Positions 1,960-10,315 of a stretch of DNA of 64,000 nucleotides are shown here, one piece after another. Positions within the stretch are counted from its first letter, which is position 1. Each line of letters opens with the position of its first letter. The translations under genes and the position numbers were made by a program. The stretch is taken from contig NZ_JAVFCB010000002.1 of the NCBI RefSeq assembly GCF_030865425.1, positions 465,487-529,486 on the forward strand. Direction: 5' to 3'. Source of the DNA: Microbacterium capsulatum. Lineage in GTDB: Bacteria; Actinomycetota; Actinomycetes; Actinomycetales; Microbacteriaceae. The notes below the pieces were generated by a model. That model had not been told where the DNA came from and did no database searches. It worked only from the letters and a program-made list of their open reading frames with translations.

Positions 1960-2091
1960 CGGGTGGCGCCCTGGTGCGGGCTGGTCGTGTTGCGTGCGTC
2001 ACGGCCGTCTCCGCCGATCGGGTGCTGCCTGCCGCAGCGCCGGGCGCCGTCTTCCGGGTGCTGCCCGCCGCTTCGGCACCCGGCGAACGAC

Positions 2092-2120
2092 GAAGGCCCC
2101 GTCGTGATGACGGGGCCTTC
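2092..2120 (-). terminator. Host terminator of tRNA-Asn, displaced by the prophage
   Basis: A 12-bp perfect stem (GAAGGCCCCGTC, loop GTGAT) with TC-rich flanks lies 8 bases beyond the left attachment repeat. In the unoccupied chromosome it would sit directly downstream of tRNA-Asn (minus strand). After integration it is 8 kb away and the prophage supplies a replacement hairpin at 10097-10133. It may also end the plus-strand ABC ATPase transcript. Confidence 0.75.
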
Positions 2121-2128
2121 GGGGGATC

Positions 2129-2165
2129 GCTCCCCGGCTTGGACTCGAACCAAGAACCTGCCGGT
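2129..2165. repeat. attL, left copy of 37-bp attachment core
   Basis: Identical over 37 bases to 10138-10174. It reproduces tRNA-Asn nucleotides 38-73 (antisense) plus one flanking base, so it is a 3' tRNA fragment, not a working tRNA. Identity stops at both ends (C/G at 2128/10137, A/T at 2166/10175). The host-side neighbour is the terminator at 2092-2120; the phage-side neighbour is the 12-codon tail of the circular-form repressor. Confidence 0.93.
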
Positions 2166-2204
2166 ATGCGCAATAGCACGCTCCGGTATCTGTACGCCGC
2201 ATAA
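2166..2204 (+). other. Detached 3' tail of the phage repressor gene (12 codons plus stop)
   Basis: Immediately after the attL core, in the frame the repressor has at attR, are codons for MRNSTLRYLYAA and a TAA stop at 2202-2204. In the circular phage the repressor would read through the core into this tail (114 residues in all). In the lysogen the tail is cut off from the gene and from its promoter. The C-terminal LYAA resembles the hydrophobic-Ala-Ala end of ssrA tags recognised by ClpXP. The frame continuity is read directly; the degradation role is inferred. Confidence 0.75.
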
Positions 2205-2244: not shown

Positions 2245-3042
2245 ATGAGCAACACCGCACTTCTCGCCGAGTACCGCGTGTACCTACTCGGTTCCGACCG
2301 CCGAGACGGCACCATCGCCCTCCGACTCCGCGAAATCGAGAAGCTGGCGATCACCCACGACCTCCGCACCGTCACCGAAGACGACCTGATCGCGATCCTC
2401 GCTCAGCGCCGCCACCAGGCGCCAGAAACCCGAAAGAGCATGCGCGCCTCATGGCGAGTGTTCTTCGAATGGGCGCACCGCAAGGGCCACCGCGCCGACG
2501 ACCCGACCATCGGCATACGCCCCATCCGGATACCCGCCCGAGTACCACGCATCGCAGACGACGCCGCGATCCTCGCCGCCCTCGGCACAGAGAACCCGCA
2601 CTACCGGGCCATGATCCTGCTCGGGAGAGGCGGATGGCTCCGCCTCTCGGAGATCGCATCCCTGCACACCAGCAGCCGGACAGGCCGCATGCTCACCATC
2701 CGCGGCAAGGGCGGGAAGGAGCGCAGTGTGTCGATCAACGACGAAGTAGCCGCGGCGCTCGACGTGCTCGAACCCCTGCAAGGCCCCGGCTACTACTTCC
2801 CAGGCTCTCGAGGCCGCGCCTACTTCCACCCGATCAGCGTCAACAAGATCATCACCCGACTCACCGGCTACAACCCGCACGCCCTCCGCCACGCCGGAGC
2901 AACAGCCGCGTGGCGAAAGACCCGCGACCTGCGCACCATCCAAGACATGCTCGGACACGCCTCGATCCGCACGACGCAGATCTACGTGCACACCGACGAC
3001 GAACAGCGGCGCGCGGTTGCCGATGCCTCGCTACTCCGCTGA
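2245..3042 (+). CDS. int: Phage tyrosine integrase
   Basis: A 265-residue site-specific recombinase that would insert the circular phage into the tRNA-Asn 3' end. Catalytic residues are all visible: Arg133 (WLRLSE), Lys155 (RGKGGK), His212 and Arg215 (HALRH), His238 (LGHAS) and nucleophile Tyr247 (QIYVHT). Residues 1-90 form the SAM-like core-binding domain. The ATG at 2245 starts the recognisable domain; the open frame upstream runs through the att repeat and is not coding here. In the circular phage the gene lies 40 bases downstream of the repressor stop, so both could share the repressor promoter; integration removes that promoter. No strong ribosome binding site is seen. Confidence 0.95.
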   Translation: MSNTALLAEYRVYLLGSDRRDGTIALRLREIEKLAITHDLRTVTEDDLIAILAQRRHQAPETRKSMRASWRVFFEWAHRKGHRADDPTIGIRPIRIPARVPRIADDAAILAALGTENPHYRAMILLGRGGWLRLSEIASLHTSSRTGRMLTIRGKGGKERSVSINDEVAAALDVLEPLQGPGYYFPGSRGRAYFHPISVNKIITRLTGYNPHALRHAGATAAWRKTRDLRTIQDMLGHASIRTTQIYVHTDDEQRRAVADASLLR

Positions 3043-3241: not shown

Positions 3242-3553
3242 TCACCAGTCCCGTGGACCTCGACCACGATCGCGGAACACCGGGAACGAGTCACGCGGAG
3301 GAGCCTTGTACCCCTTCGGCTTCTTGACCGTGCCGGTGGACTGCCAGCGGGCCGCATCCATCAGCGCGTGCCGGACCGCGAGGCGGATGAGCCAGTACAC
3401 GCCCCAGATCACGAGGAACGTCGCGCCGAGGTACAGCAGCAGCGCGAGGATCCCGAAGCCGAGCAGCCCCGCCGCGATCCCGCCAACCGCCCCCGGATCC
3501 GGCGACAGCGGCTCGACCGGGAAGGGCTGAACAGGTATCGGCGTCGGATCCAT
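3242..3553 (-). CDS. Prophage membrane protein, last gene of morphogenesis operon
   Basis: A 103-residue protein of unrecognised family. A Pro-rich N-terminal segment (about 1-20, with repeated P-x-P) precedes a long hydrophobic stretch at about 22-60, enough for one long or two short membrane helices, then a basic, Arg/Lys/Pro-rich tail ending GRGPRDW. The gene starts 9 bases after the preceding stop and ends at the operon terminator. With the 50-residue protein upstream it may supply the membrane part of the Zot-type assembly machine, whose ATPase here has no obvious membrane segment. That role is inference. Confidence 0.7.
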   Translation of the reverse strand: MDPTPIPVQPFPVEPLSPDPGAVGGIAAGLLGFGILALLLYLGATFLVIWGVYWLIRLAVRHALMDAARWQSTGTVKKPKGYKAPPRDSFPVFRDRGRGPRDW

Positions 3554-3562
3554 GCCCGAAAG

Positions 3563-3715
3563 CTACCGGTCAGCGCGACGCCGCCGCAACATCCACCAGC
3601 CGAGCAGTGCTCCCGCGGCGACGACGGCGACCCAGGGGAGGGGCAGCGCCCACATGCCGCGGAAGATCGCGGCGTGCACGATCCATCGGAGGATCAGGCC
3701 CGGGATGTCGTTCAC
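3563..3715 (-). CDS. Small prophage membrane protein (50 aa)
   Basis: Starts with GTG inside the stop of the Zot-like gene (GTGA overlap), so translation is probably coupled. It has a short amphipathic N-terminus (NDIPGLILRWIVHAAIFR), a hydrophobic segment at about 23-43 (PLPWVAVVAAGALLGWWML) and a basic tail RRRRADR, predicting one membrane helix with the tail in the cytoplasm. No family is recognised. Its place directly after the ATPase resembles small helper membrane proteins of inovirus assembly complexes, a positional guess only. Confidence 0.7.
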   Translation of the reverse strand: MNDIPGLILRWIVHAAIFRGMWALPLPWVAVVAAGALLGWWMLRRRRADR

Positions 3716-4638
3716 TTGTCGCACCGGCAGACGGGGACGGACCGACGGCCGCCGCAGTGCGCGCAGCGTCCGCCGTCGAGGACGTCACCGACGCGCGAAA
3801 CGGCGTCGTAGGTGTCGTACGAGGCGAAGACGCGGGAGCGGGGTCCCCACCACCACTGGACCACGGACGGGCGCAGGGGGCGGACGGCGCCCTTGTCCTG
3901 GGATGCCTTCGCGGCGGTCCACTCGTCGAAGTCGACGGCGGCGAACGAGCGAGCCTTGAAGAGCCGCTTGGGGAGCCAGGCCGGGGGAGCGTCGCCGCGC
4001 AGCAGTTTGCGATCGGGGAGCCACCCGCGGCAGTCGGTCACGAGTTGGGTGCAGGATCGGATGATGCTGTCGGCGCGGGACCAGGACGGCGCGGACCACG
4101 ACATCGGTGTGTCGGCGCGGCGAAGCTGGTTCAGCTTGTTCTGCACGACCACGGGCATGCCCATCGACTCGCGGGATCCGGCGATGCCGGTCACCTCGTC
4201 GAAAAGGATGTCGCAGTGCTCCGCCTCAAGGACCTGCGTCCACTCGGTGAGCCGGTCGCACAACGGGTGAGGGAGCCCGGTCCGCTCGTCGTACAGCTGC
4301 ACCGTGGACAGGACCCGCCGCCAGCCCTCGGTTTCCCCGCGCTGAGTGTGCAGGTGAGCCGGGTTCGAGCACCGCCAGTACTGCCCGTCCAGGACCGGGA
4401 GCACGTCCATCACCATCAGCGCGGTCTTGCCGGATCCGTTCGGGCCGATGTACGCGCGGATCGAGGATTGCCGTCGCCGGTGGACCTTCTTCTTCGCCTT
4501 CGCCTTGAGTGGGCGCGGCGGCGGGCCGGGGGGCGCCGGGACCTGCGGCCCCCCGGCGCCCCCCGGCCCGCCGTCCCCGCCCGCTCCGTCGAGATCGATG
4601 CCGAGCTCTGCGAGCGCGGTCGCCTGGAATTCGACCAT
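3712..4638 (-). CDS. Zot/pI-like phage assembly ATPase
   Basis: Inovirus pI (Zot family) is the ATPase that drives virion extrusion through the envelope. This 308-residue protein has a Gly/Pro-rich N-terminal segment (17-45), a basic stretch KAKAKKKVHRRR (about 45-56), Walker A GPNGSGKT at 65-72 and Walker B ILFDE at 144-148. The C-terminus carries four cysteines in C-x2-C and C-x-C pairs (CAHC, CRC), perhaps a metal site. Unlike most pI/Zot proteins, no membrane helix is evident. Its ATG overlaps the upstream stop (TAATG) and its TGA overlaps the next GTG. Assignment rests on the P-loop plus its position after the pVI-like gene. Confidence 0.88.
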   Translation of the reverse strand: MVEFQATALAELGIDLDGAGGDGGPGGAGGPQVPAPPGPPPRPLKAKAKKKVHRRRQSSIRAYIGPNGSGKTALMVMDVLPVLDGQYWRCSNPAHLHTQRGETEGWRRVLSTVQLYDERTGLPHPLCDRLTEWTQVLEAEHCDILFDEVTGIAGSRESMGMPVVVQNKLNQLRRADTPMSWSAPSWSRADSIIRSCTQLVTDCRGWLPDRKLLRGDAPPAWLPKRLFKARSFAAVDFDEWTAAKASQDKGAVRPLRPSVVQWWWGPRSRVFASYDTYDAVSRVGDVLDGGRCAHCGGRRSVPVCRCDK

Positions 4639-4913
4639 TAGCCGTTACCTCCGAACAGGGGGACATGCGAGAACAGGGCGCGGAACACCTTCACGACGAA
4701 CGCGCCGATGTAGAAGAGCATCACGATGGGGAACACGATCGCGAGGGTGTCCCACGGCATCCACGCGCCGATAGACGCGGCACCGGCCAGGATCGGGCCG
4801 AACGCGTTTTGCGCGGTCACGATCAGCCCGTGCGCGCTATCGGTGTTCGGGAGAAGACCGATAAACCAGGTCGCCAGGTTCTGTGCGAGGCTCATGAACC
4901 ATTCGGTGATCAC
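4638..4913 (-). CDS. pVI-like minor coat/membrane protein
   Basis: A 91-residue protein between the adhesin and the Zot ATPase, the slot of gene VI in filamentous phages. Hydrophobic segments are seen at about 10-22, 28-50 and 56-78 (LAIVFPIVMLFYIGAFVVKVF). Filamentous pVI caps the terminal end of the virion together with pIII. The start codon overlaps the upstream stop (ATGA at 4910-4913). Sequence alone does not prove orthology; the call uses size, hydrophobicity and gene order. Confidence 0.75.
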   Translation of the reverse strand: MITEWFMSLAQNLATWFIGLLPNTDSAHGLIVTAQNAFGPILAGAASIGAWMPWDTLAIVFPIVMLFYIGAFVVKVFRALFSHVPLFGGNG

Positions 4914-7003
4914 TTGAACCTCACCCCCGCCGGGCTCTGATCGTGGTCACCCAAGCCGAGGCCGAGGCCGACGAACCCGAACACGCCCGCCCCGTACCGG
5001 ATCACCGCGAGGAACCCGCCCAGGGCGATCACACCGGTCAGGATGCCGCGGACGACGGCGGCGACACCGGCCCACGGCTCGGAGCACGCCTCGAAGAGCC
5101 GCCCGTGGAAGGACACCCCGAACGCGTCGAACCCGAACGGGAGCCCCGAGCACCCGGACGAGGTGCTGAAGATCGCGCCCATCGATCCGACCGACGCGAG
5201 CAGTTGCCCCATGCTCGACGCCTCCCAGGCGCGGCTGATGTTGCCCTTGACGTTCTCGACCTGCGAGGCCCGCGGCACGAACGCCCATTCCAGGGCGCAC
5301 TTGATCGGCACGAACACCCAGTCCACCGGATTCCAGGAGATCGCGCCCGCCCAGCAATTCCGGTTCGCTTCCGGGTTCCCCGGTTGGGTGCCCGGTTCCA
5401 GCGTCATCTGCGGGGAGGTCGTCGCCGTCGGCGCCGATGCCGGGTTCGAGGCGCCCGGCTGCGGGTATGCCGTGCCGGTCGCGATCGCGTTCGGTTCGAA
5501 CAGCCGCGAGTAGTAATAGCACTCGGACAGGTCGAGCACCTGCCCCCCATAGGTGCATTGGTAGAGGGTGCTCTTGTTCGGGTCCGAGTACCAGCCCGCG
5601 CACGACAGCGGGTTGACCAGGCACGACCCCACGCCCTGCTTGATCAGGTCGAGTTTCAGCAGCGTGCCGTTGCCCGGCTGATAGGTGCGCTGCCAGTCGC
5701 GGATGACCTGCGGAACCTCGGAGGTGACTTGTGTGCGGGTCGGGTTCGATCCGGGGATGTATCCGGGCTCGTCGGCCGGGACGACCTCCACGATCCGTTT
5801 CGTCTCGATCTCGGACGGCGGCAGGGTCGGCGCGCACGGCTGCGGGACCAGAGCGTCCGTCTCCAGGAACGTGGAGGTGCGGCAGGAGAACGTGTGGCCC
5901 GACTCGGCGAAGACCGTCGTCATCAGCTGCACCGGCTTGACGCCGGGCGAGTAGGTCGGCGCGCCGAGGTCGGGGGAGTTGTACGGCATGGGGTTAAGCG
6001 TCGTCCACGACCCCGAGGAGTTCGGGCGGACGTGGTAGACGTACGCGTTCCAGTCGAGCCGGGCGCGCCACTGGTACTTCGTGCCCGACGGCATCGTGAA
6101 CCCGGCCACACTGTCGGAGGAGGCGAGCTTGTCGAGGATGACGCAGTTGACGCACCCGGGCCGCGCGGACTTGTAATCGACCTTCACGCTGGCCCGGTCC
6201 ACGTCCAGCGGCACGGACACGCTGATGTAGTTACCATCCGTGGTCGTGCCGTACGGCCCCGACGTGGACACGAGCCGCATCTCGAGCAGGATCGAACCGG
6301 TCCCGGTGGCGAGGGTGCCCGATACCGGGATCACCCACCCCTCTTTCCGGGCGACGTTCAACGGCGGCGTGGTCCCGCTCGCCGGAACCGTCGTGTCCGA
6401 CCACTGCGGCACGCCGAACGTGATCCCCGCGAACGTCAGCGGAAACTGCGCGATCCCGGCCGGAATGGTCACGTTCTGCGGCTGATAGCTCGGGTTCTTC
6501 GCCTGCTTCCAGCTCGCCCGGATCGCGTTGCAGTCCACCCCGGATCCGCCGATCGGTGCGAGCGACGACAGCCAATCGTGCACGCCCGTGAAGAACTCAT
6601 CGAACGGACCACCGACCCGGGCGCAGTTGTCCCAGTCCGACTGGGAGATGTACGACGGTTTCGGGGAGTCGTGACTGTAGTCCACAACCTGCTCGGTGCC
6701 CTGCCCGGCGCCGTACTGCACCAGCAGCGACAGGCCACCGAAGAGCCCGTTCGCCGCTCCGGTCGCGATCCGCGTCGGCGCGACGTTATAACTCCCCGGC
6801 GCGAGAACCCCGCTGCGCGTGTTCGAGACTTCCTTCGTGATCTGCTCCGGGCTCAGCCCCGACCCGTTCAGCACCGACGCCGGGAGCGTCTGCGCATAAT
6901 CACCCGGATCCGTGCCGATCGTCGCGTGCGCCCCGCTCGGAATTGCCACCGCGGCCGCGGTCACGAACGCGACCACCGCGAGAGCACTACCCAACCTGCG
7001 CAT
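4910..7003 (-). CDS. pIII-like adsorption protein with signal peptide and C-terminal anchor
   Basis: A 697-residue secreted protein, the largest of the prophage, in the position of gene III (between coat protein and pVI). A Sec signal peptide is clear: MRRL, hydrophobic core to about 22, then a likely cleavage after AHA near 27. The mature part contains many Cys, probably disulfide-bonded, and Thr/Pro-rich spacers (about 525-560). The C-terminus has a membrane segment (about 650-672, GILTGVIALGGFLAVI) followed by a Gly-rich stretch and a basic end. Filamentous pIII binds the host receptor and releases the virion by the same anchored topology. The receptor-binding part matches nothing I recognise, as expected for a host-specific tip protein. 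Confidence 0.85.
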   Translation of the reverse strand: MRRLGSALAVVAFVTAAAVAIPSGAHATIGTDPGDYAQTLPASVLNGSGLSPEQITKEVSNTRSGVLAPGSYNVAPTRIATGAANGLFGGLSLLVQYGAGQGTEQVVDYSHDSPKPSYISQSDWDNCARVGGPFDEFFTGVHDWLSSLAPIGGSGVDCNAIRASWKQAKNPSYQPQNVTIPAGIAQFPLTFAGITFGVPQWSDTTVPASGTTPPLNVARKEGWVIPVSGTLATGTGSILLEMRLVSTSGPYGTTTDGNYISVSVPLDVDRASVKVDYKSARPGCVNCVILDKLASSDSVAGFTMPSGTKYQWRARLDWNAYVYHVRPNSSGSWTTLNPMPYNSPDLGAPTYSPGVKPVQLMTTVFAESGHTFSCRTSTFLETDALVPQPCAPTLPPSEIETKRIVEVVPADEPGYIPGSNPTRTQVTSEVPQVIRDWQRTYQPGNGTLLKLDLIKQGVGSCLVNPLSCAGWYSDPNKSTLYQCTYGGQVLDLSECYYYSRLFEPNAIATGTAYPQPGASNPASAPTATTSPQMTLEPGTQPGNPEANRNCWAGAISWNPVDWVFVPIKCALEWAFVPRASQVENVKGNISRAWEASSMGQLLASVGSMGAIFSTSSGCSGLPFGFDAFGVSFHGRLFEACSEPWAGVAAVVRGILTGVIALGGFLAVIRYGAGVFGFVGLGLGLGDHDQSPAGVRFK

Positions 7004-7080: not shown

Positions 7081-7242
7081 TCAGGAAACGAGGCGCTTCG
7101 CCCAGCGGAAGACGAAAGGCACGCCGAACGCGATCAGGCCGATCGCGAGCAGCGCGGGGGCGTTCGTGGTCAGGTAGCCACCGAAGTCCGCGAACGCGGT
7201 GGCGACCAGCCCGCCCGGGTCGGTTGCAACGAGGGGGACCAT
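7081..7242 (-). CDS. Major coat protein (pVIII-like)
   Basis: A 53-residue protein with the layout of a filamentous major coat subunit: an acidic/polar N-terminal half (Asp8, Asp19), a hydrophobic helix at about 29-46 (PALLAIGLIAFGVPFVF) and a basic C-terminus (RWAKRLVS) that would face the DNA. It has the strongest ribosome binding site in the prophage, AAAGGAGGTG four bases before the ATG, as expected for a protein needed in thousands of copies. No cleavable signal peptide is apparent, as in the Pf3 coat protein, so it may insert directly through YidC. It is followed by a hairpin and then the adhesin gene. Confidence 0.82.
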   Translation of the reverse strand: MVPLVATDPGGLVATAFADFGGYLTTNAPALLAIGLIAFGVPFVFRWAKRLVS

Positions 7243-7671: not shown

Positions 7672-8004
7672 CTACTTCGTGGCCGGCTGCATCAGCGCGT
7701 GGAAGGCCTCCAGCTCGTCGCCGGTCACGTAGCCGACCACGGTCAGGCTGGAGCCCCACTCGCGCGACTCCCCGAGCTCGACCATGAGGCCGATGACCTC
7801 ACCCACACCCGGGACGGGCGGCGCGTCCGGCCGGTTCGGGAATCGCACGTCCGCGACCGAGAAGCCCTCCTGGAGCAGCTTCACGTCGCGGCGACCGACG
7901 TTGCCGGTCTTCTTGCCCTCGCGGTCGTACTCCGGCTGGTTCTCGATCCCGAGAACGGTCCCCCGGATCAGCATCGACGGGCGGACGGGCTTGCTCACTG
8001 CCAT
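7672..8004 (-). CDS. Probable phage single-stranded DNA-binding protein (gpV-like)
   Basis: A 110-residue, beta-rich soluble protein directly after the Rep gene. In filamentous phages this slot encodes gpV, which coats the new single strand before packaging. Basic N-terminal SKPVRPS and a central strand-rich part (RGTVLGIEN, GRRDVKLLQ, SVADVRF, VIGLMVELGES, SSLTVVGYV) fit an OB-type fold, but no signature is decisive. The ribosome binding site TAGGAG lies 7 bases before the ATG and can pair with a complementary copy about 35 bases upstream, which could allow translational control. Confidence 0.68.
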   Translation of the reverse strand: MAVSKPVRPSMLIRGTVLGIENQPEYDREGKKTGNVGRRDVKLLQEGFSVADVRFPNRPDAPPVPGVGEVIGLMVELGESREWGSSLTVVGYVTGDELEAFHALMQPATK

Positions 8005-8096: not shown

Positions 8097-8996
8097 TCAG
8101 GCCGCCGCGGGTTCACCCGCGTCACGCGCTTTCAGCACCCGGCGCAGCAGATCCGCGCCGAGCTTGTCCCAGTCCGGCCCGCGGCGATCCCCGAGATTCG
8201 CGGCCAACGTGGACAGGTGCTCGCCGTACTGCTTGACCATCCACGAGAGCGCCCGCTCGAGATCCGACTCGCGGCGTTCCCGAATGTGCACCCGCTCGAC
8301 GTTGGCCTCGGTCAGCCGGCGCAGCAGATCCCTCGACCAGTCGGCGTACCCGTACGCGTCCTCGGGTGTGCCCTTCGCGGCCACCCAGCGGGAATCCTTC
8401 TCCGGCCTCACCTGCACTTCGACGCGACACAGGTTCCGGTCATGCACCTCCGGCAACCCCTGCTTACGCGCGATCTCGTTCAGCTGCTTGCCCTTCTCGT
8501 ACAGGCGCGCGCGCACCGCCGACTTTTCCGAGCCGACATAGAACGTGCGACCCGTGTGCTCCGGATCCTCCGCATCCCGCATCCAGTCGCCAGCCTGCGA
8601 GATCTTCAGCCGACGCCGCGTCACACGCTCCGGGTCAAGGTCCGGATCCGACACCGCGCACATGATCTCGAGCAGCTTGTCCCAGGTGCCGACGCCCTCG
8701 CAGATGTCCTCCGCGGCATCGACACGCGTCGCGTAGTGATCTTCCGGCCACAGACCGCGGATCATCGGCACCACCTCATCGCAGTCGTCGGACGAGACGA
8801 TCAGGTGAGGATCCCCGTTCGCCCCGCCGAAAAGGATCGTGCAGAGCGTGGAGTCATCACGACGGATCAGCGCGCCGAACTCGTACCCGTTCCGGGGCCG
8901 GCCATTCTCGACCGTCGCGCGAAGCGCGGACGCGACCTGATGCAGCACGGCGTACGAGTCGTCCCGGATCGTGGCCGAGTACCAGTCGAAGCGCAC
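8097..8996 (-). CDS. Rolling-circle replication initiator, Rep_trans family
   Basis: A 299-residue protein of the replication-initiator family that includes RstA of the filamentous phage CTXphi and RepC-type plasmid proteins. It would nick the double-stranded phage circle and start single-strand synthesis. Family hallmarks are R-x-D-x-A-x-D (RVDAAED, 91-97), G-R-T-F-Y-V-G-S (149-156), R-L-Y-E-K-G-K-Q (164-171) and an R-V-E-V-Q-V-R strand (191-197). The start is GTG with AAGGGGG about 8 bases upstream. Palindromes just upstream (9014-9073) are the natural candidate for its origin. It is followed by the ssDNA-binding-like gene after a 92-base AT-rich gap. Confidence 0.9.
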   Translation of the reverse strand: MRFDWYSATIRDDSYAVLHQVASALRATVENGRPRNGYEFGALIRRDDSTLCTILFGGANGDPHLIVSSDDCDEVVPMIRGLWPEDHYATRVDAAEDICEGVGTWDKLLEIMCAVSDPDLDPERVTRRRLKISQAGDWMRDAEDPEHTGRTFYVGSEKSAVRARLYEKGKQLNEIARKQGLPEVHDRNLCRVEVQVRPEKDSRWVAAKGTPEDAYGYADWSRDLLRRLTEANVERVHIRERRESDLERALSWMVKQYGEHLSTLAANLGDRRGPDWDKLGADLLRRVLKARDAGEPAAA

Positions 8997-9385: not shown

Positions 9386-9567
9386 AGCACCAACCGCCGC
9401 ATCACGTCATCCCGACCAGCCCAGCCCTCCGGACGAACCGCCGCAATCCGCACATACGCAACCACGCACAGGACACCGTGCCGCTCCGCAGCCGCCAACG
9501 CGTCGCGCGCTGACTCCCAAGAGATCTCCCACCCGCACCGGCACGATGAGACGAACCGCGGGCTCAC
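9382..9567 (-). CDS. Small cysteine-containing prophage protein (61 aa)
   Basis: The preferred start is the GTG overlapping the stop of the excisionase-like gene (GTGA at 9564-9567), giving 61 residues; upstream in-frame starts at 9597 and 9591 would overlap that gene more. The N-terminus SSCRCGWEISW followed by a helix (ESARDALAAAERHGV) resembles short C-x-C-G-W proteins often found in actinophages, possibly metal-binding. No function can be named. Confidence 0.6.
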   Translation of the reverse strand: MSPRFVSSCRCGWEISWESARDALAAAERHGVLCVVAYVRIAAVRPEGWAGRDDVMRRLVL

Positions 9568-9779
9568 AGCGGCAGCCGATCGCCCGGGCATCGCCACGCG
9601 ATGACCGCCGCCTCCGTGAACAGACGCGCACCGAGCGGGCCTGGAAGCTGAGCCGCGACCTCAAGCCTGCCTTGCCGGGCGGCGAGGTTCACGCACTCAC
9701 GTGTCACCCCGAGTCGTCGCGCAACTTCGCGCGATGTCAGGAGTTCCCCAAAGTCCTGCACTTGCACAAGTCCGACCAT
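9564..9779 (-). CDS. Excisionase-like HTH protein, first gene of the prophage operon
   Basis: A 71-residue MerR/excisionase-type winged helix protein: LTSREVARRLGVTRECVNLAARQGRL (about 14-39) is the helix-turn-helix and LGARLFTEAAVIAW (48-62) the wing and last helix. It heads the minus-strand operon and is divergent from the repressor. It could be the directionality factor for the tyrosine integrase, or a Cro-like early regulator. A 15-base repeat shared with the intergenic region lies within its first codons (9762-9776). Confidence 0.72.
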   Translation of the reverse strand: MVGLVQVQDFGELLTSREVARRLGVTRECVNLAARQGRLEVAAQLPGPLGARLFTEAAVIAWRCPGDRLPL

Positions 9780-9836
9780 GGTCAGACTCTAGGGCTATAC
9801 CTTGCAATTGCACAACTCCGACACACATCGGATATC
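9762..9836. promoter_or_regulatory. Divergent control region with repeated operator-like sites
   Basis: TTGCACAAGTCCGAC (9762-9776) and TTGCACAACTCCGAC (9808-9822) are direct repeats matching 14 of 15, 46 bases apart. The second covers a possible -35 (TTGCAC, 9808-9813) spaced 17 bases from GATATC (9831-9836), a plausible repressor promoter; the first lies over the start of the divergent early gene. This is the arrangement expected for operators of a lysogeny switch. The promoter match is weak and the sites are unproven. Confidence 0.45.
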
Positions 9837-9868
9837 GACAACCGTCAGAACGGGTGCACACTTAACCC

Positions 9869-10177
9869 ATGTCCACCAACACCATGCATGATCAGCGCTT
9901 CGAGATGAACAAGGCCGACCGCCTGAACCTCGCGTTGCGCCGCTCCGGCCTCACCGCTCAGCAGCTCGCCGCGAAGATCGACATTTCGCGCGCGACGATC
10001 AGCGCATGGATCAACGGACGCAACGAGCCGCGCCGGAAGGAGTTGGCCGCGTTCGCCCTGGCGACGGGCTACCCGGTGCGCTGGCTGGAGACGGGAGAAG
10101 CCCCGATCCAGGGCGGACCTGGATCGGGGCTTCGTGGGCTCCCCGGCTTGGACTCGAACCAAGAACCTGCCGGTTAA
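9869..10177 (+). CDS. XRE-family phage repressor, prophage form; 3' end formed by attR
   Basis: A 102-residue DNA-binding protein divergent from the lytic operon and the likely immunity repressor. The helix-turn-helix covers about 18-73 (LALRRSGLTAQQLAAKIDIS, RATISAWINGR). Residues 90-102 (G-LPGLDSNQEPAG) are encoded by the 37-bp attachment core, antisense to tRNA-Asn, and the TAA stop comes from the host tRNA sequence just beyond it. In the circular phage the same frame continues for 12 codons (2166-2204), ending LYAA, then stops. Integration therefore shortens the protein from 114 to 102 residues. The start ATG at 9869 lacks a clear ribosome binding site; an ATG at 9905 is an alternative. 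The tRNA terminator hairpin (10097-10133) also lies within the gene. Confidence 0.85.
   Translation: MSTNTMHDQRFEMNKADRLNLALRRSGLTAQQLAAKIDISRATISAWINGRNEPRRKELAAFALATGYPVRWLETGEAPIQGGPGSGLRGLPGLDSNQEPAG
10097..10133 (-). terminator. Phage-borne terminator replacing that of tRNA-Asn
   Basis: A 15-bp perfect stem (GAAGCCCCGATCCAG, 7-base loop) four bases beyond the tRNA-side att core, in the position the host terminator held before integration. The phage thus restores both the tRNA 3' end and its terminator. The same bases encode repressor residues around 77-89. Confidence 0.7.
10138..10174. repeat. attR, right copy of 37-bp attachment core
   Basis: Identical to 2129-2165. It covers tRNA-Asn nucleotides 38 (just 3' of the anticodon) to 73, so crossover would occur between the anticodon loop and the 3' end, typical of tyrosine integrases. 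On the plus strand it encodes the last codons of the repressor. Confidence 0.93.
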
Positions 10178-10211
10178 CAGCCGGCTGCTCTGCCAATTGA
10201 GCTACCGAGGA
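10139..10211 (-). tRNA. tRNA-Asn (anticodon GTT)
   Basis: A 73-base cloverleaf: acceptor TCCTCGG/CCGGGGA with one G-T pair, D-arm, anticodon stem GCCGG/CCGGC around CTGTTAA (anticodon GTT at 34-36), T-arm CTTGG-TTCGAGT-CCAAG, discriminator G. CCA is not encoded. Nucleotides 38-73 coincide with the attachment core, so the prophage leaves the tRNA intact. Confidence 0.97.
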
Positions 10212-10237
10212 ATGCTTCCCGCTGCGCGGGCAACTCG

Positions 10238-10243
10238 TCAACT
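10238..10243 (-). promoter_or_regulatory. Possible -10 element of tRNA-Asn
   Basis: TATAGT on the minus strand, 26 bases before the tRNA 5' end, in an AT-richer pocket (10233-10257). No convincing -35 hexamer is visible. Confidence 0.35.
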
Positions 10244-10315
10244 ATAGCAAAGGTTGTGCGCTTCCCCCGTCATCGGCCGGGACCCCGGGCGCGTCGCGTC
10301 CGGGGCGCCGCGGGA

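What the first reader, a model, noticed from the sequence alone, without database searches (positions are those of the whole stretch)
9869..10177. Phage immunity repressor is shortened by integration: attP lies in the 3' end of its gene
Seen directly: the 37-bp core at 10138-10174 is inside the repressor's frame and the prophage form stops at a host-supplied TAA (102 residues). Joining 10174 to 2166, as in the excised circle, keeps the frame open for MRNSTLRYLYAA and a stop (114 residues). Known: in mycobacteriophages of the BPs/Brujita/Charlie type, attP is within the repressor gene and the longer viral form carries an ssrA-like tag and is degraded, so only integration gives stable immunity. 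The LYAA end fits a ClpXP-type tag. I do not know of this switch being described for a filamentous phage.
Basis: partly seen in the sequence, partly recalled or inferred. Interest (0 to 1): 0.95.

Follow-up and report, generated by a model that had tools for sequence, protein, structure and literature searches.

The report
Filamentous phage immunity gated by integration
A phage of filamentous type (judged by its genes) sitting in a Microbacterium chromosome has its attachment site inside its repressor gene, so that a stop codon in a host tRNA gene cuts the protein to 102 residues, whereas the excised circle would encode 114 residues ending in a likely destruction tag, which would make integration itself the event that switches immunity on.

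Summary
An 8,009-bp prophage of filamentous type (Rep_trans, B5/Zot-type ATPase, structural genes) lies in tRNA-Asn. Its 37-bp core is inside a CI/XRE repressor ORF; the prophage form (102 aa) stops at TAA 10175-10177, which overlaps the tRNA anticodon. Joining 10174 to 2166 gives 114 aa ending RYLYAA. The repressor's relatives include those of tailed actinophages with integration-dependent immunity. Of 9 elements read at both ends, circle forms end AA (5), AS (2), VA (1), AK (1); prophage forms never AA. In IMG/VR loci, 18 of 27 attP-form repressors end in AA, against 0 of 37 without integrase downstream and 15 of 443 other ORFs. Two further filamentous-type prophages share the layout (tRNA-Thr, GAAA; tRNA-Ala, ALAK, an exception). 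The integrase tree puts this Int with those of prophages in tRNA-Asn, two of them shown to be tailed, so the cassette crossed between the two phage kinds at least twice. Proteolysis, immunity and the circle itself are untested. attP inside a filamentous-phage regulator is known (phiRSS0, XacF1); the tag-plus-own-integrase cassette I did not find in print. New variant of a known kind.

The parts
9869..10177 (+). repressor gene, prophage form, 102 aa, CI/XRE HTH; TAA 10175-10177 supplied by the tRNA-Asn gene
   Evidence: HTH_3 5.8e-12, Phage_CI_repr 2e-07; phrog_2328 1.3e-23
10138..10174 (.). att core, right copy (inside the repressor frame; 3' part of tRNA-Asn)
2129..2165 (.). att core, left copy
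2166..2204 (+). 3' end of the viral-form repressor gene (MRNSTLRYLYAA, stop 2202-2204), separated from the gene in the prophage
   Evidence: the circle is inferred
10135..10212 (-). tRNA-Asn(GTT), target gene kept intact
2245..3042 (+). tyrosine integrase, 265 aa, ends ASLLR (no tag)
   Evidence: (PF00589 2e-19)
9564..9779 (-). 71-aa HTH_17-like protein, divergent from the repressor (Cro/excisionase position); Pfam score 25.7, just under the curated cut-off of 27
   Evidence: relatives divergent to the repressor in the G024 tailed prophage and in 12 of 64 IMG/VR loci
9762..9822 (.). two direct copies of TTGCACAASTCCGAC (9762-9776, 9808-9822), candidate operators; the only two TTGCACAA in the element
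   Evidence: function inferred
10097..10133 (-). perfect 16-bp-stem hairpin within the repressor 3' coding region, directly behind the tRNA 3' end; candidate replacement terminator of the tRNA
   Evidence: no canonical T run
2091..2121 (-). hairpin left on the host side of the element (probable original tRNA terminator)
8097..8996 (-). rolling-circle replication initiator
   Evidence: PF02486 1e-12
7672..8004 (-). 110-aa protein with relatives in three other filamentous-type loci (L130, L132, L154)
7081..7242 (-). 53-aa candidate major coat protein (one hydrophobic segment, basic end)
   Evidence: sequence; inference
4910..7003 (-). 697-aa adsorption/structural-type protein, conserved beside the Zot-like gene
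4638..4913 (-). 91-aa small structural-type protein, conserved beside the Zot-like gene
3712..4638 (-). Zot-like assembly ATPase, relative of phage B5 Orf8
   Evidence: (phrog_20922 8.6e-33)

Best explanation
This is an integrated phage, filamentous by its genes, whose repressor gene spans its own attachment site, so that the prophage encodes a 102-residue repressor while the excised circle would encode a 114-residue form whose Ala-Ala end is predicted to send it to a ClpXP-type protease. In the circular, virion-producing state the repressor would be made but destroyed, leaving the leftward genes (HTH_17, Rep, coat, adsorption, Zot) on. When the integrase recombines attP with the tRNA-Asn gene, the tag codons are cut away and a stop codon from the tRNA anticodon loop ends the protein, which would then be stable, bind the divergent control region (candidate operators 9762-9776 and 9808-9822) and shut these genes off on the chromosome and on any remaining circles. 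Shown: anatomy, frames, homology, recurrence of the layout and of the Ala-Ala type ends in relatives. Inferred: that the circle forms, that the tag is read by ClpX, that the short form gives immunity.
For: Exact core in tRNA-Asn and open frame across the junction. Repressor in phrog_2328; tblastn finds relatives in 167 phage records, the best listed being Gordonia and Mycobacterium repressors. Of these, Wizard and McGonagall are named as integration-dependent in PMC5559632 (passages) and cluster P mycobacteriophages in PMC9262239 (section 9). The repressors of SallySpecial, McGonagall, Wizard and Phayonce end AA, AA, AA and VA. Host tmRNA tag ends FALAA. Of 9 elements with both ends, circle forms end AA in 5, AS in 2, VA in 1, AK in 1; prophage forms end AA in 0 of 9. 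In IMG/VR loci AA in 18 of 27 attP-form repressors, 0 of 37 without integrase downstream, 15 of 443 other ORFs. Second filamentous-type prophage with tRNA-Thr and a different tail...ARYGAAA. The recognised phage production genes lie on the minus strand behind the HTH_17 gene, repressor and Int on the plus strand.
Against: No read joins the element's ends; no protein measured. The third filamentous-type case ends ALAK, not AA. Residue -3 here is Y (LYAA), while E. coli-type tags have LAA (recalled). The Int here lacks a tag (SLLR). No sigma-70-like promoter was found by the scan in 9700-10260. In G212 a related filamentous-type element has the integrase and a core but no repressor could be found, and no frame there ends in AA. 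One metagenomic long form (P0009) ends ATG, not AA, and one of the 27 attP forms (L112) ends RS.
Confidence: 0.8

Rival explanations
1. attP overlaps the repressor's end only because the tRNA half-site was captured there; both forms are active and the tail has no function.
For: The HTH core (residues about 18-77) is far from the junction; integration by itself need not change activity; one filamentous-type case ends ALAK; P0009 ends ATG.
Against: Tails of different lengths and sequences converge on Ala-Ala type ends: 18 of 27, and 26 of 27 by the relaxed rule, against 3.4% and 12.9% of 443 other ORFs in the same contigs; forms without integrase downstream show AA in 0 of 37.
Confidence: 0.1
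2. The tail changes activity rather than stability: the viral form is a different regulator (for example an activator or weaker binder), as proposed for phiRSS0 ORF13.
For: phiRSS0 ORF13 is cut from 156 to 130 aa by integration and a functional difference was hypothesised (PMC3816273, passages); the XRE proteins of XacF1, phiXv2 and phiLf end TGQ, RTG and GQCS, not AA.
Against: The actinophage family here shows the Ala-Ala end; in BPs the two forms bind DNA similarly and differ by degradation (PMC4557955, abstract and passages).
Confidence: 0.08
3. The element is a decayed prophage that never excises, so the circle form is only theoretical.
For: No reads or circular contig found: the junction pattern has 0 matches in viral contigs; no near relative among phage records.
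Against: The recognised main genes are open over their length, the core copies are identical, and the same layout stands in other genera.
Confidence: 0.12

Closest known systems
Integration-dependent immunity of tailed actinophages (BPs, cluster P mycobacteriophages, Gordonia phages)
   Same: attP inside the repressor ORF, tyrosine Int downstream on the same strand, tRNA attB with a core of about 35 bp, host-supplied stop, Ala-Ala type end only in the viral form, homologous repressor (PMC9262239 section 9, PMC4557955 passages)
   Different: carrier has filamentous-type genes, with rolling-circle replication and presumably no lysis; Int here has no tag; smaller genome (8.0 kb)
phiRSS0 of Ralstonia and XacF1/Cf of Xanthomonas (filamentous)
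   Same: attP inside an HTH regulator gene, reading frame cut on integration, suspected role in immunity or prophage stability (PMC3816273, PMC5666396, passages)
   Different: host XerC/D and dif instead of a phage integrase and tRNA; Gram-negative hosts; XacF1, phiXv2 and phiLf proteins do not end in Ala-Ala; no degradation tag proposed in the passages read; the phiRSS0 record was not in the collection, so its end was not read
Pf4 of Pseudomonas (filamentous)
   Same: tRNA target, phage tyrosine integrase, divergent repressor and 71-aa excisionase/regulator of the HTH_17 kind (PMC7379572, PMC7549136, passages)
   Different: no report in those passages of the repressor spanning attP or being cut by integration
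Propionibacterium phage B5 (Tubulavirales, Paulinoviridae)
   Same: homologous Zot-like protein and similar order coat - large structural - small structural - Zot-like
   Different: 5.8 kb; no gene among its 10 annotated CDS is named integrase or repressor

Membership tests
Integration-dependent immunity system | attP within the repressor ORF, frame open across attP in the viral form | tested here: met
   circle inferred from the two ends
Integration-dependent immunity system | tRNA attB with a common core that restores the tRNA | tested here: met
   37-bp core, intact tRNA-Asn
Integration-dependent immunity system | int directly downstream of rep on the same strand in the viral form | tested here: met
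   viral rep stop ends 2204, int starts 2245
Integration-dependent immunity system | rep and int co-transcribed | not testable with these tools
   no transcription data
Integration-dependent immunity system | viral repressor ends in an ssrA-like tag, prophage form does not | tested here: met
   sequence only: RYLYAA against EPAG
Integration-dependent immunity system | viral form degraded, short form gives immunity | not testable with these tools
   needs protein half-lives and superinfection assays
[quoted passage not shown]
   window Int ends SLLR; L127 Int ends TLAA, L141 Int ends AMA, L010 Int ends SGQP; AA in 12 of 27 viral-contig Ints (19 of 27 by the relaxed rule), so not universal
Integration-dependent immunity system | no recombination directionality factor | tested here: inconclusive
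   the divergent 71-aa HTH_17-like gene could be Cro-like or an excisionase
Integration-dependent immunity system | homology of the repressor | tested here: met
Filamentous phage (Tubulavirales, B5-like) | Zot/pI-type assembly ATPase | tested here: met
   phrog_20922 8.6e-33; 40.5% to B5 Orf8; Pfam Zot matches 3 of 4 alignment members, not the window's own
Filamentous phage (Tubulavirales, B5-like) | rolling-circle initiator and genome of about 5-12 kb | tested here: met
   PF02486; 8,009 bp
Filamentous phage (Tubulavirales, B5-like) | filamentous virions released without lysis | not testable with these tools
   no virion data
phiRSS0/XacF1-type regulator | dif attP used by host XerC/D | tested here: not met
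   tRNA-Asn core and own tyrosine integrase

The most novel reading that the evidence does not exclude
Integration-dependent immunity is a portable cassette (Cro/Xis-like gene, operator, tag-ended repressor over attP, integrase) that has crossed between tailed double-stranded DNA phages and filamentous single-stranded DNA phages at least twice, giving filamentous phages a lysis-free memory switch in which only chromosomal insertion makes a cell immune and silences the remaining replicating circles.
Probability: 0.65. Interest if true: 0.85.

Novelty: new variant of a known kind. Interest (0 to 1): 0.7.

Why it matters
Filamentous phages do not kill their hosts, so an infected cell can switch at any later generation; a repressor that becomes stable only after insertion would couple immunity and silencing to a single DNA event. 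It would also show that a decision cassette moves between two unrelated kinds of virus, and gives a small, testable switch in filamentous phages of Gram-positive bacteria.

Tried and rejected
Chance tail: rejected by the census. Annotation artefact (repressor really ending before the core): rejected because the frame into the core is shared by relatives with other tRNAs and other reading frames of the T-loop. Direct evidence of the circle: junction pattern not found in viral contigs, no near phage record. First viral-contig scans with the window's own Zot and Rep gave no relatives; alignments of Zot-like proteins did. In the first family scans of the G024 element I picked open frames that gave no structural match; other frames gave major head and weak portal matches, and in G021 terminase, major head and minor tail. 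Sigma-70 promoter and T-run terminator scan empty. Elements left out of the both-ends count of 9: L041, L043, L044 (repressor found, no core pair in the DNA read), L047 (tail only), L048 and L050 (no repressor hit by tblastn), L010 (no repressor end). L135, L136 and L137 were fetched to extend some of these but not analysed. G589 and G456 (weak Zot hits) were not fetched; L014 (weak, with stops) showed no relatives. Of the nine, L046 has only a 15-bp exact core with mismatches around it, and the L128 row was read from a wrong start and is replaced. The 27 attP-form rows include near-copies (L109/L110) and four with 0.9-1.4 kb between repressor and Int; 4 of the 37 others are cut off by the contig end. 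P0016 and L062 have the same tail and contig length and are probably one record.

Full report
WHAT IS THERE. The exact 37-bp repeat 2129-2165 / 10138-10174 is the 3' part of tRNA-Asn(GTT), 10135-10212 on the minus strand. It bounds an 8,009-bp element with a tyrosine integrase (2245-3042 +, PF00589), a PF02486 replication initiator (8097-8996 -), a Zot-like protein (3712-4638 -) related to Orf8 of Propionibacterium phage B5, whose record is filed under Tubulavirales, Paulinoviridae, and two structural-type genes that recur beside Zot-like genes in other loci. The repressor (9869-10177 +) is a CI/XRE HTH protein. I take the 53-aa ORF 7081-7242 for the coat protein from its sequence only.

THE JUNCTION. 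Prophage form: 102 aa, stop TAA 10175-10177. Circle form: 114 aa, ending RYLYAA, stop 2202-2204, with 40 nt between it and the integrase ATG at 2245. The stop codon overlaps the anticodon of the tRNA gene. In 9 of 9 elements read at both ends the prophage stop lies inside the tRNA gene, and in 6 of 9 it overlaps the anticodon triplet (for eight, for L128). A host can hardly mutate such a stop away (inference).

RELATIVES. A search of 290 genomes of the host's genus with the repressor found 22 with a match at 1e-5, own genome included. I fetched 12 regions. Six of the 13 sequences read (window included) gave a core pair and a circle form at once, G112 a seventh after more DNA was fetched, and two filamentous-type elements found through Zot complete the nine. 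Circle tails: window LYAA, G021 REAA, G112 PLAA, G024 RRAA, G426 GAAA, G195 RIAS, G272 TVAS, G277 ARVA, G356 ALAK. Prophage tails, in the same order: EPAG, EPAG, EPIG, EPIG, LHYE, TSTV, LPTF, TSTV, RSTN. Among 18 database proteins (P0001 is the window's own), nine run past the core or its equivalent; by my reading eight of these end in AA or VA and one (P0009) in ATG.

CENSUS. A scan of IMG/VR with the repressor alignment gave 64 loci. None of them showed relatives of the window's Zot, Rep or 697-aa protein at 1e-4. 27 have a complete repressor with an integrase within 1.6 kb downstream on the same strand, 37 do not. AA ends: 18 of 27, 0 of 37; other ORFs of at least 100 aa in the same contigs 15 of 443. 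By a relaxed rule (small or hydrophobic residue plus A, or AS): 26 of 27, 2 of 37 and 57 of 443 (Fisher p 1.3e-9 for AA between the first two). 25 of the 37 end within two bases of the contig end, most with a tRNA-type sequence, as trimmed prophages would. The rows are related sequences, so the p-values are only a guide. Positive controls: SallySpecial, McGonagall, Wizard and Phayonce repressors end AA, AA, AA and VA.

FILAMENTOUS-TYPE CASES. Zot relatives are rare: 5 of 295 genomes of the genus (one weak, with stops), 10 of 398 of the family, 5 of 396 of the order and 2 of 394 of the class, own genome counted each time. I read 26 loci with filamentous-type genes, window included; L147 and L150 look like one element, and L142-L145 repeat L126, its second copy, L128 and L127. 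Three have the repressor: the window; G426 (Pseudoclavibacter sp. 13-3, through the matching named record L145) in tRNA-Thr(CGT), element 8,155 bp; and G356 (an Actinomycetales MAG, record L144) in tRNA-Ala(CGC), on two contigs. A fourth, G212, has an integrase and a tRNA-like core, but only one core copy is in the assembly, no repressor was found, and none of its three frames ends in AA. Many of the other loci are fragments or may be episomal, so absence there means little.

CASSETTE EXCHANGE. In a 41-row integrase tree the window's Int groups with the Ints of three Microbacterium prophages that use tRNA-Asn (support 100/97; best match 55.5% to G024), while the other three filamentous-type Ints lie elsewhere (three changes of label, two forced by well-supported branches); holding the four together is rejected (p-AU 7e-87; a rough figure, with long branches in play). 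G021 carries terminase, major head and minor tail genes and G024 major head and, weakly, portal, so these two are tailed; G112 was not tested. An HTH_17 relative stands divergent to the repressor in G024 and in 12 of the 64 IMG/VR loci. I infer that the cassette, or parts of it, crossed between the two kinds of phage at least twice; the direction is not shown.

MECHANISM. Shown: anatomy, frames, homology, recurrence. Inferred: in the circle the tagged repressor is degraded; after integration the short form accumulates and shuts the leftward genes needed for production. The published model for BPs is that both forms bind DNA similarly and the long form is degraded through its tag (PMC4557955, abstract and passages; PMC9262239, section 9 read whole). 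The host's own tmRNA tag ends FALAA. Differences from that model: no tag on this Int, and a possible excisionase in the Cro position.

PRIOR ART. For filamentous phages, attP inside a regulator and its truncation on integration were reported for phiRSS0 (PMC3816273, passages: 156 to 130 aa, with a hypothesis that the truncated form stabilises the prophage and gives immunity) and XacF1 (PMC5666396, abstract and passages). The Xanthomonas proteins read here end TGQ, RTG and GQCS, so they do not show this tag. I also saw passages of PMC7379572, PMC7549136, PMC4471427, PMC5608472, PMC5559632 and PMC4490671. I found no report of a tag-based integration-dependent switch in a filamentous phage in searches; several of these listed only the top 10-20 papers of a longer set, and the library lacks most subscription journals. 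Broussard et al. 2013 was not read, only cited through the papers above.

A SECOND LAYER. In 7 of 9 elements the repressor's last codons before the core form a strong hairpin directly behind the tRNA 3' end, probably a replacement for the tRNA terminator that integration displaces. If so, the same stretch encodes a protein tail on one strand and a terminator on the other. The automatic scan, which needs a T run, does not list the window's hairpin.

Noticed in passing
window 10097-10133: Perfect 16-bp-stem hairpin in the repressor's 3' coding region, behind the tRNA 3' end; hairpins at the same place in 7 of 9 elements, absent in L042 and L128. Candidate phage-borne tRNA terminator.
   Followed up: partly
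window 9762-9776 and 9808-9822: Direct repeat TTGCACAASTCCGAC on both sides of the HTH_17 gene start; TTGCACAA occurs nowhere else in the element. Candidate operators.
   Followed up: partly
L047 17535-18264: In G076 a relative (52%) of the window's 103-aa ORF (3242-3553) lies beside tRNA-Asn and a similar hairpin, without HTH, Zot or Int relatives found in the 20 kb read: remnant of a related prophage or a host gene.
   Followed up: partly
L010 3199-4165: G212: filamentous-type element with integrase and a tRNA-Thr-like core, only one core copy in the assembly, repressor end not found.
   Followed up: partly
L041 1571-1948, L043 18065-18379: Repressors ending ..VTHR / ..VTRH with no tRNA found in the fetched DNA; P0011 and L106 run on from VTHR to AA or SA ends, so another kind of attachment site may be used.
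   Followed up: no
L126 11867-13018: Pseudolysinimonas kribbensis filamentous-type locus, present near both ends of one contig, with a more distant integrase and no repressor of this family found.
   Followed up: no
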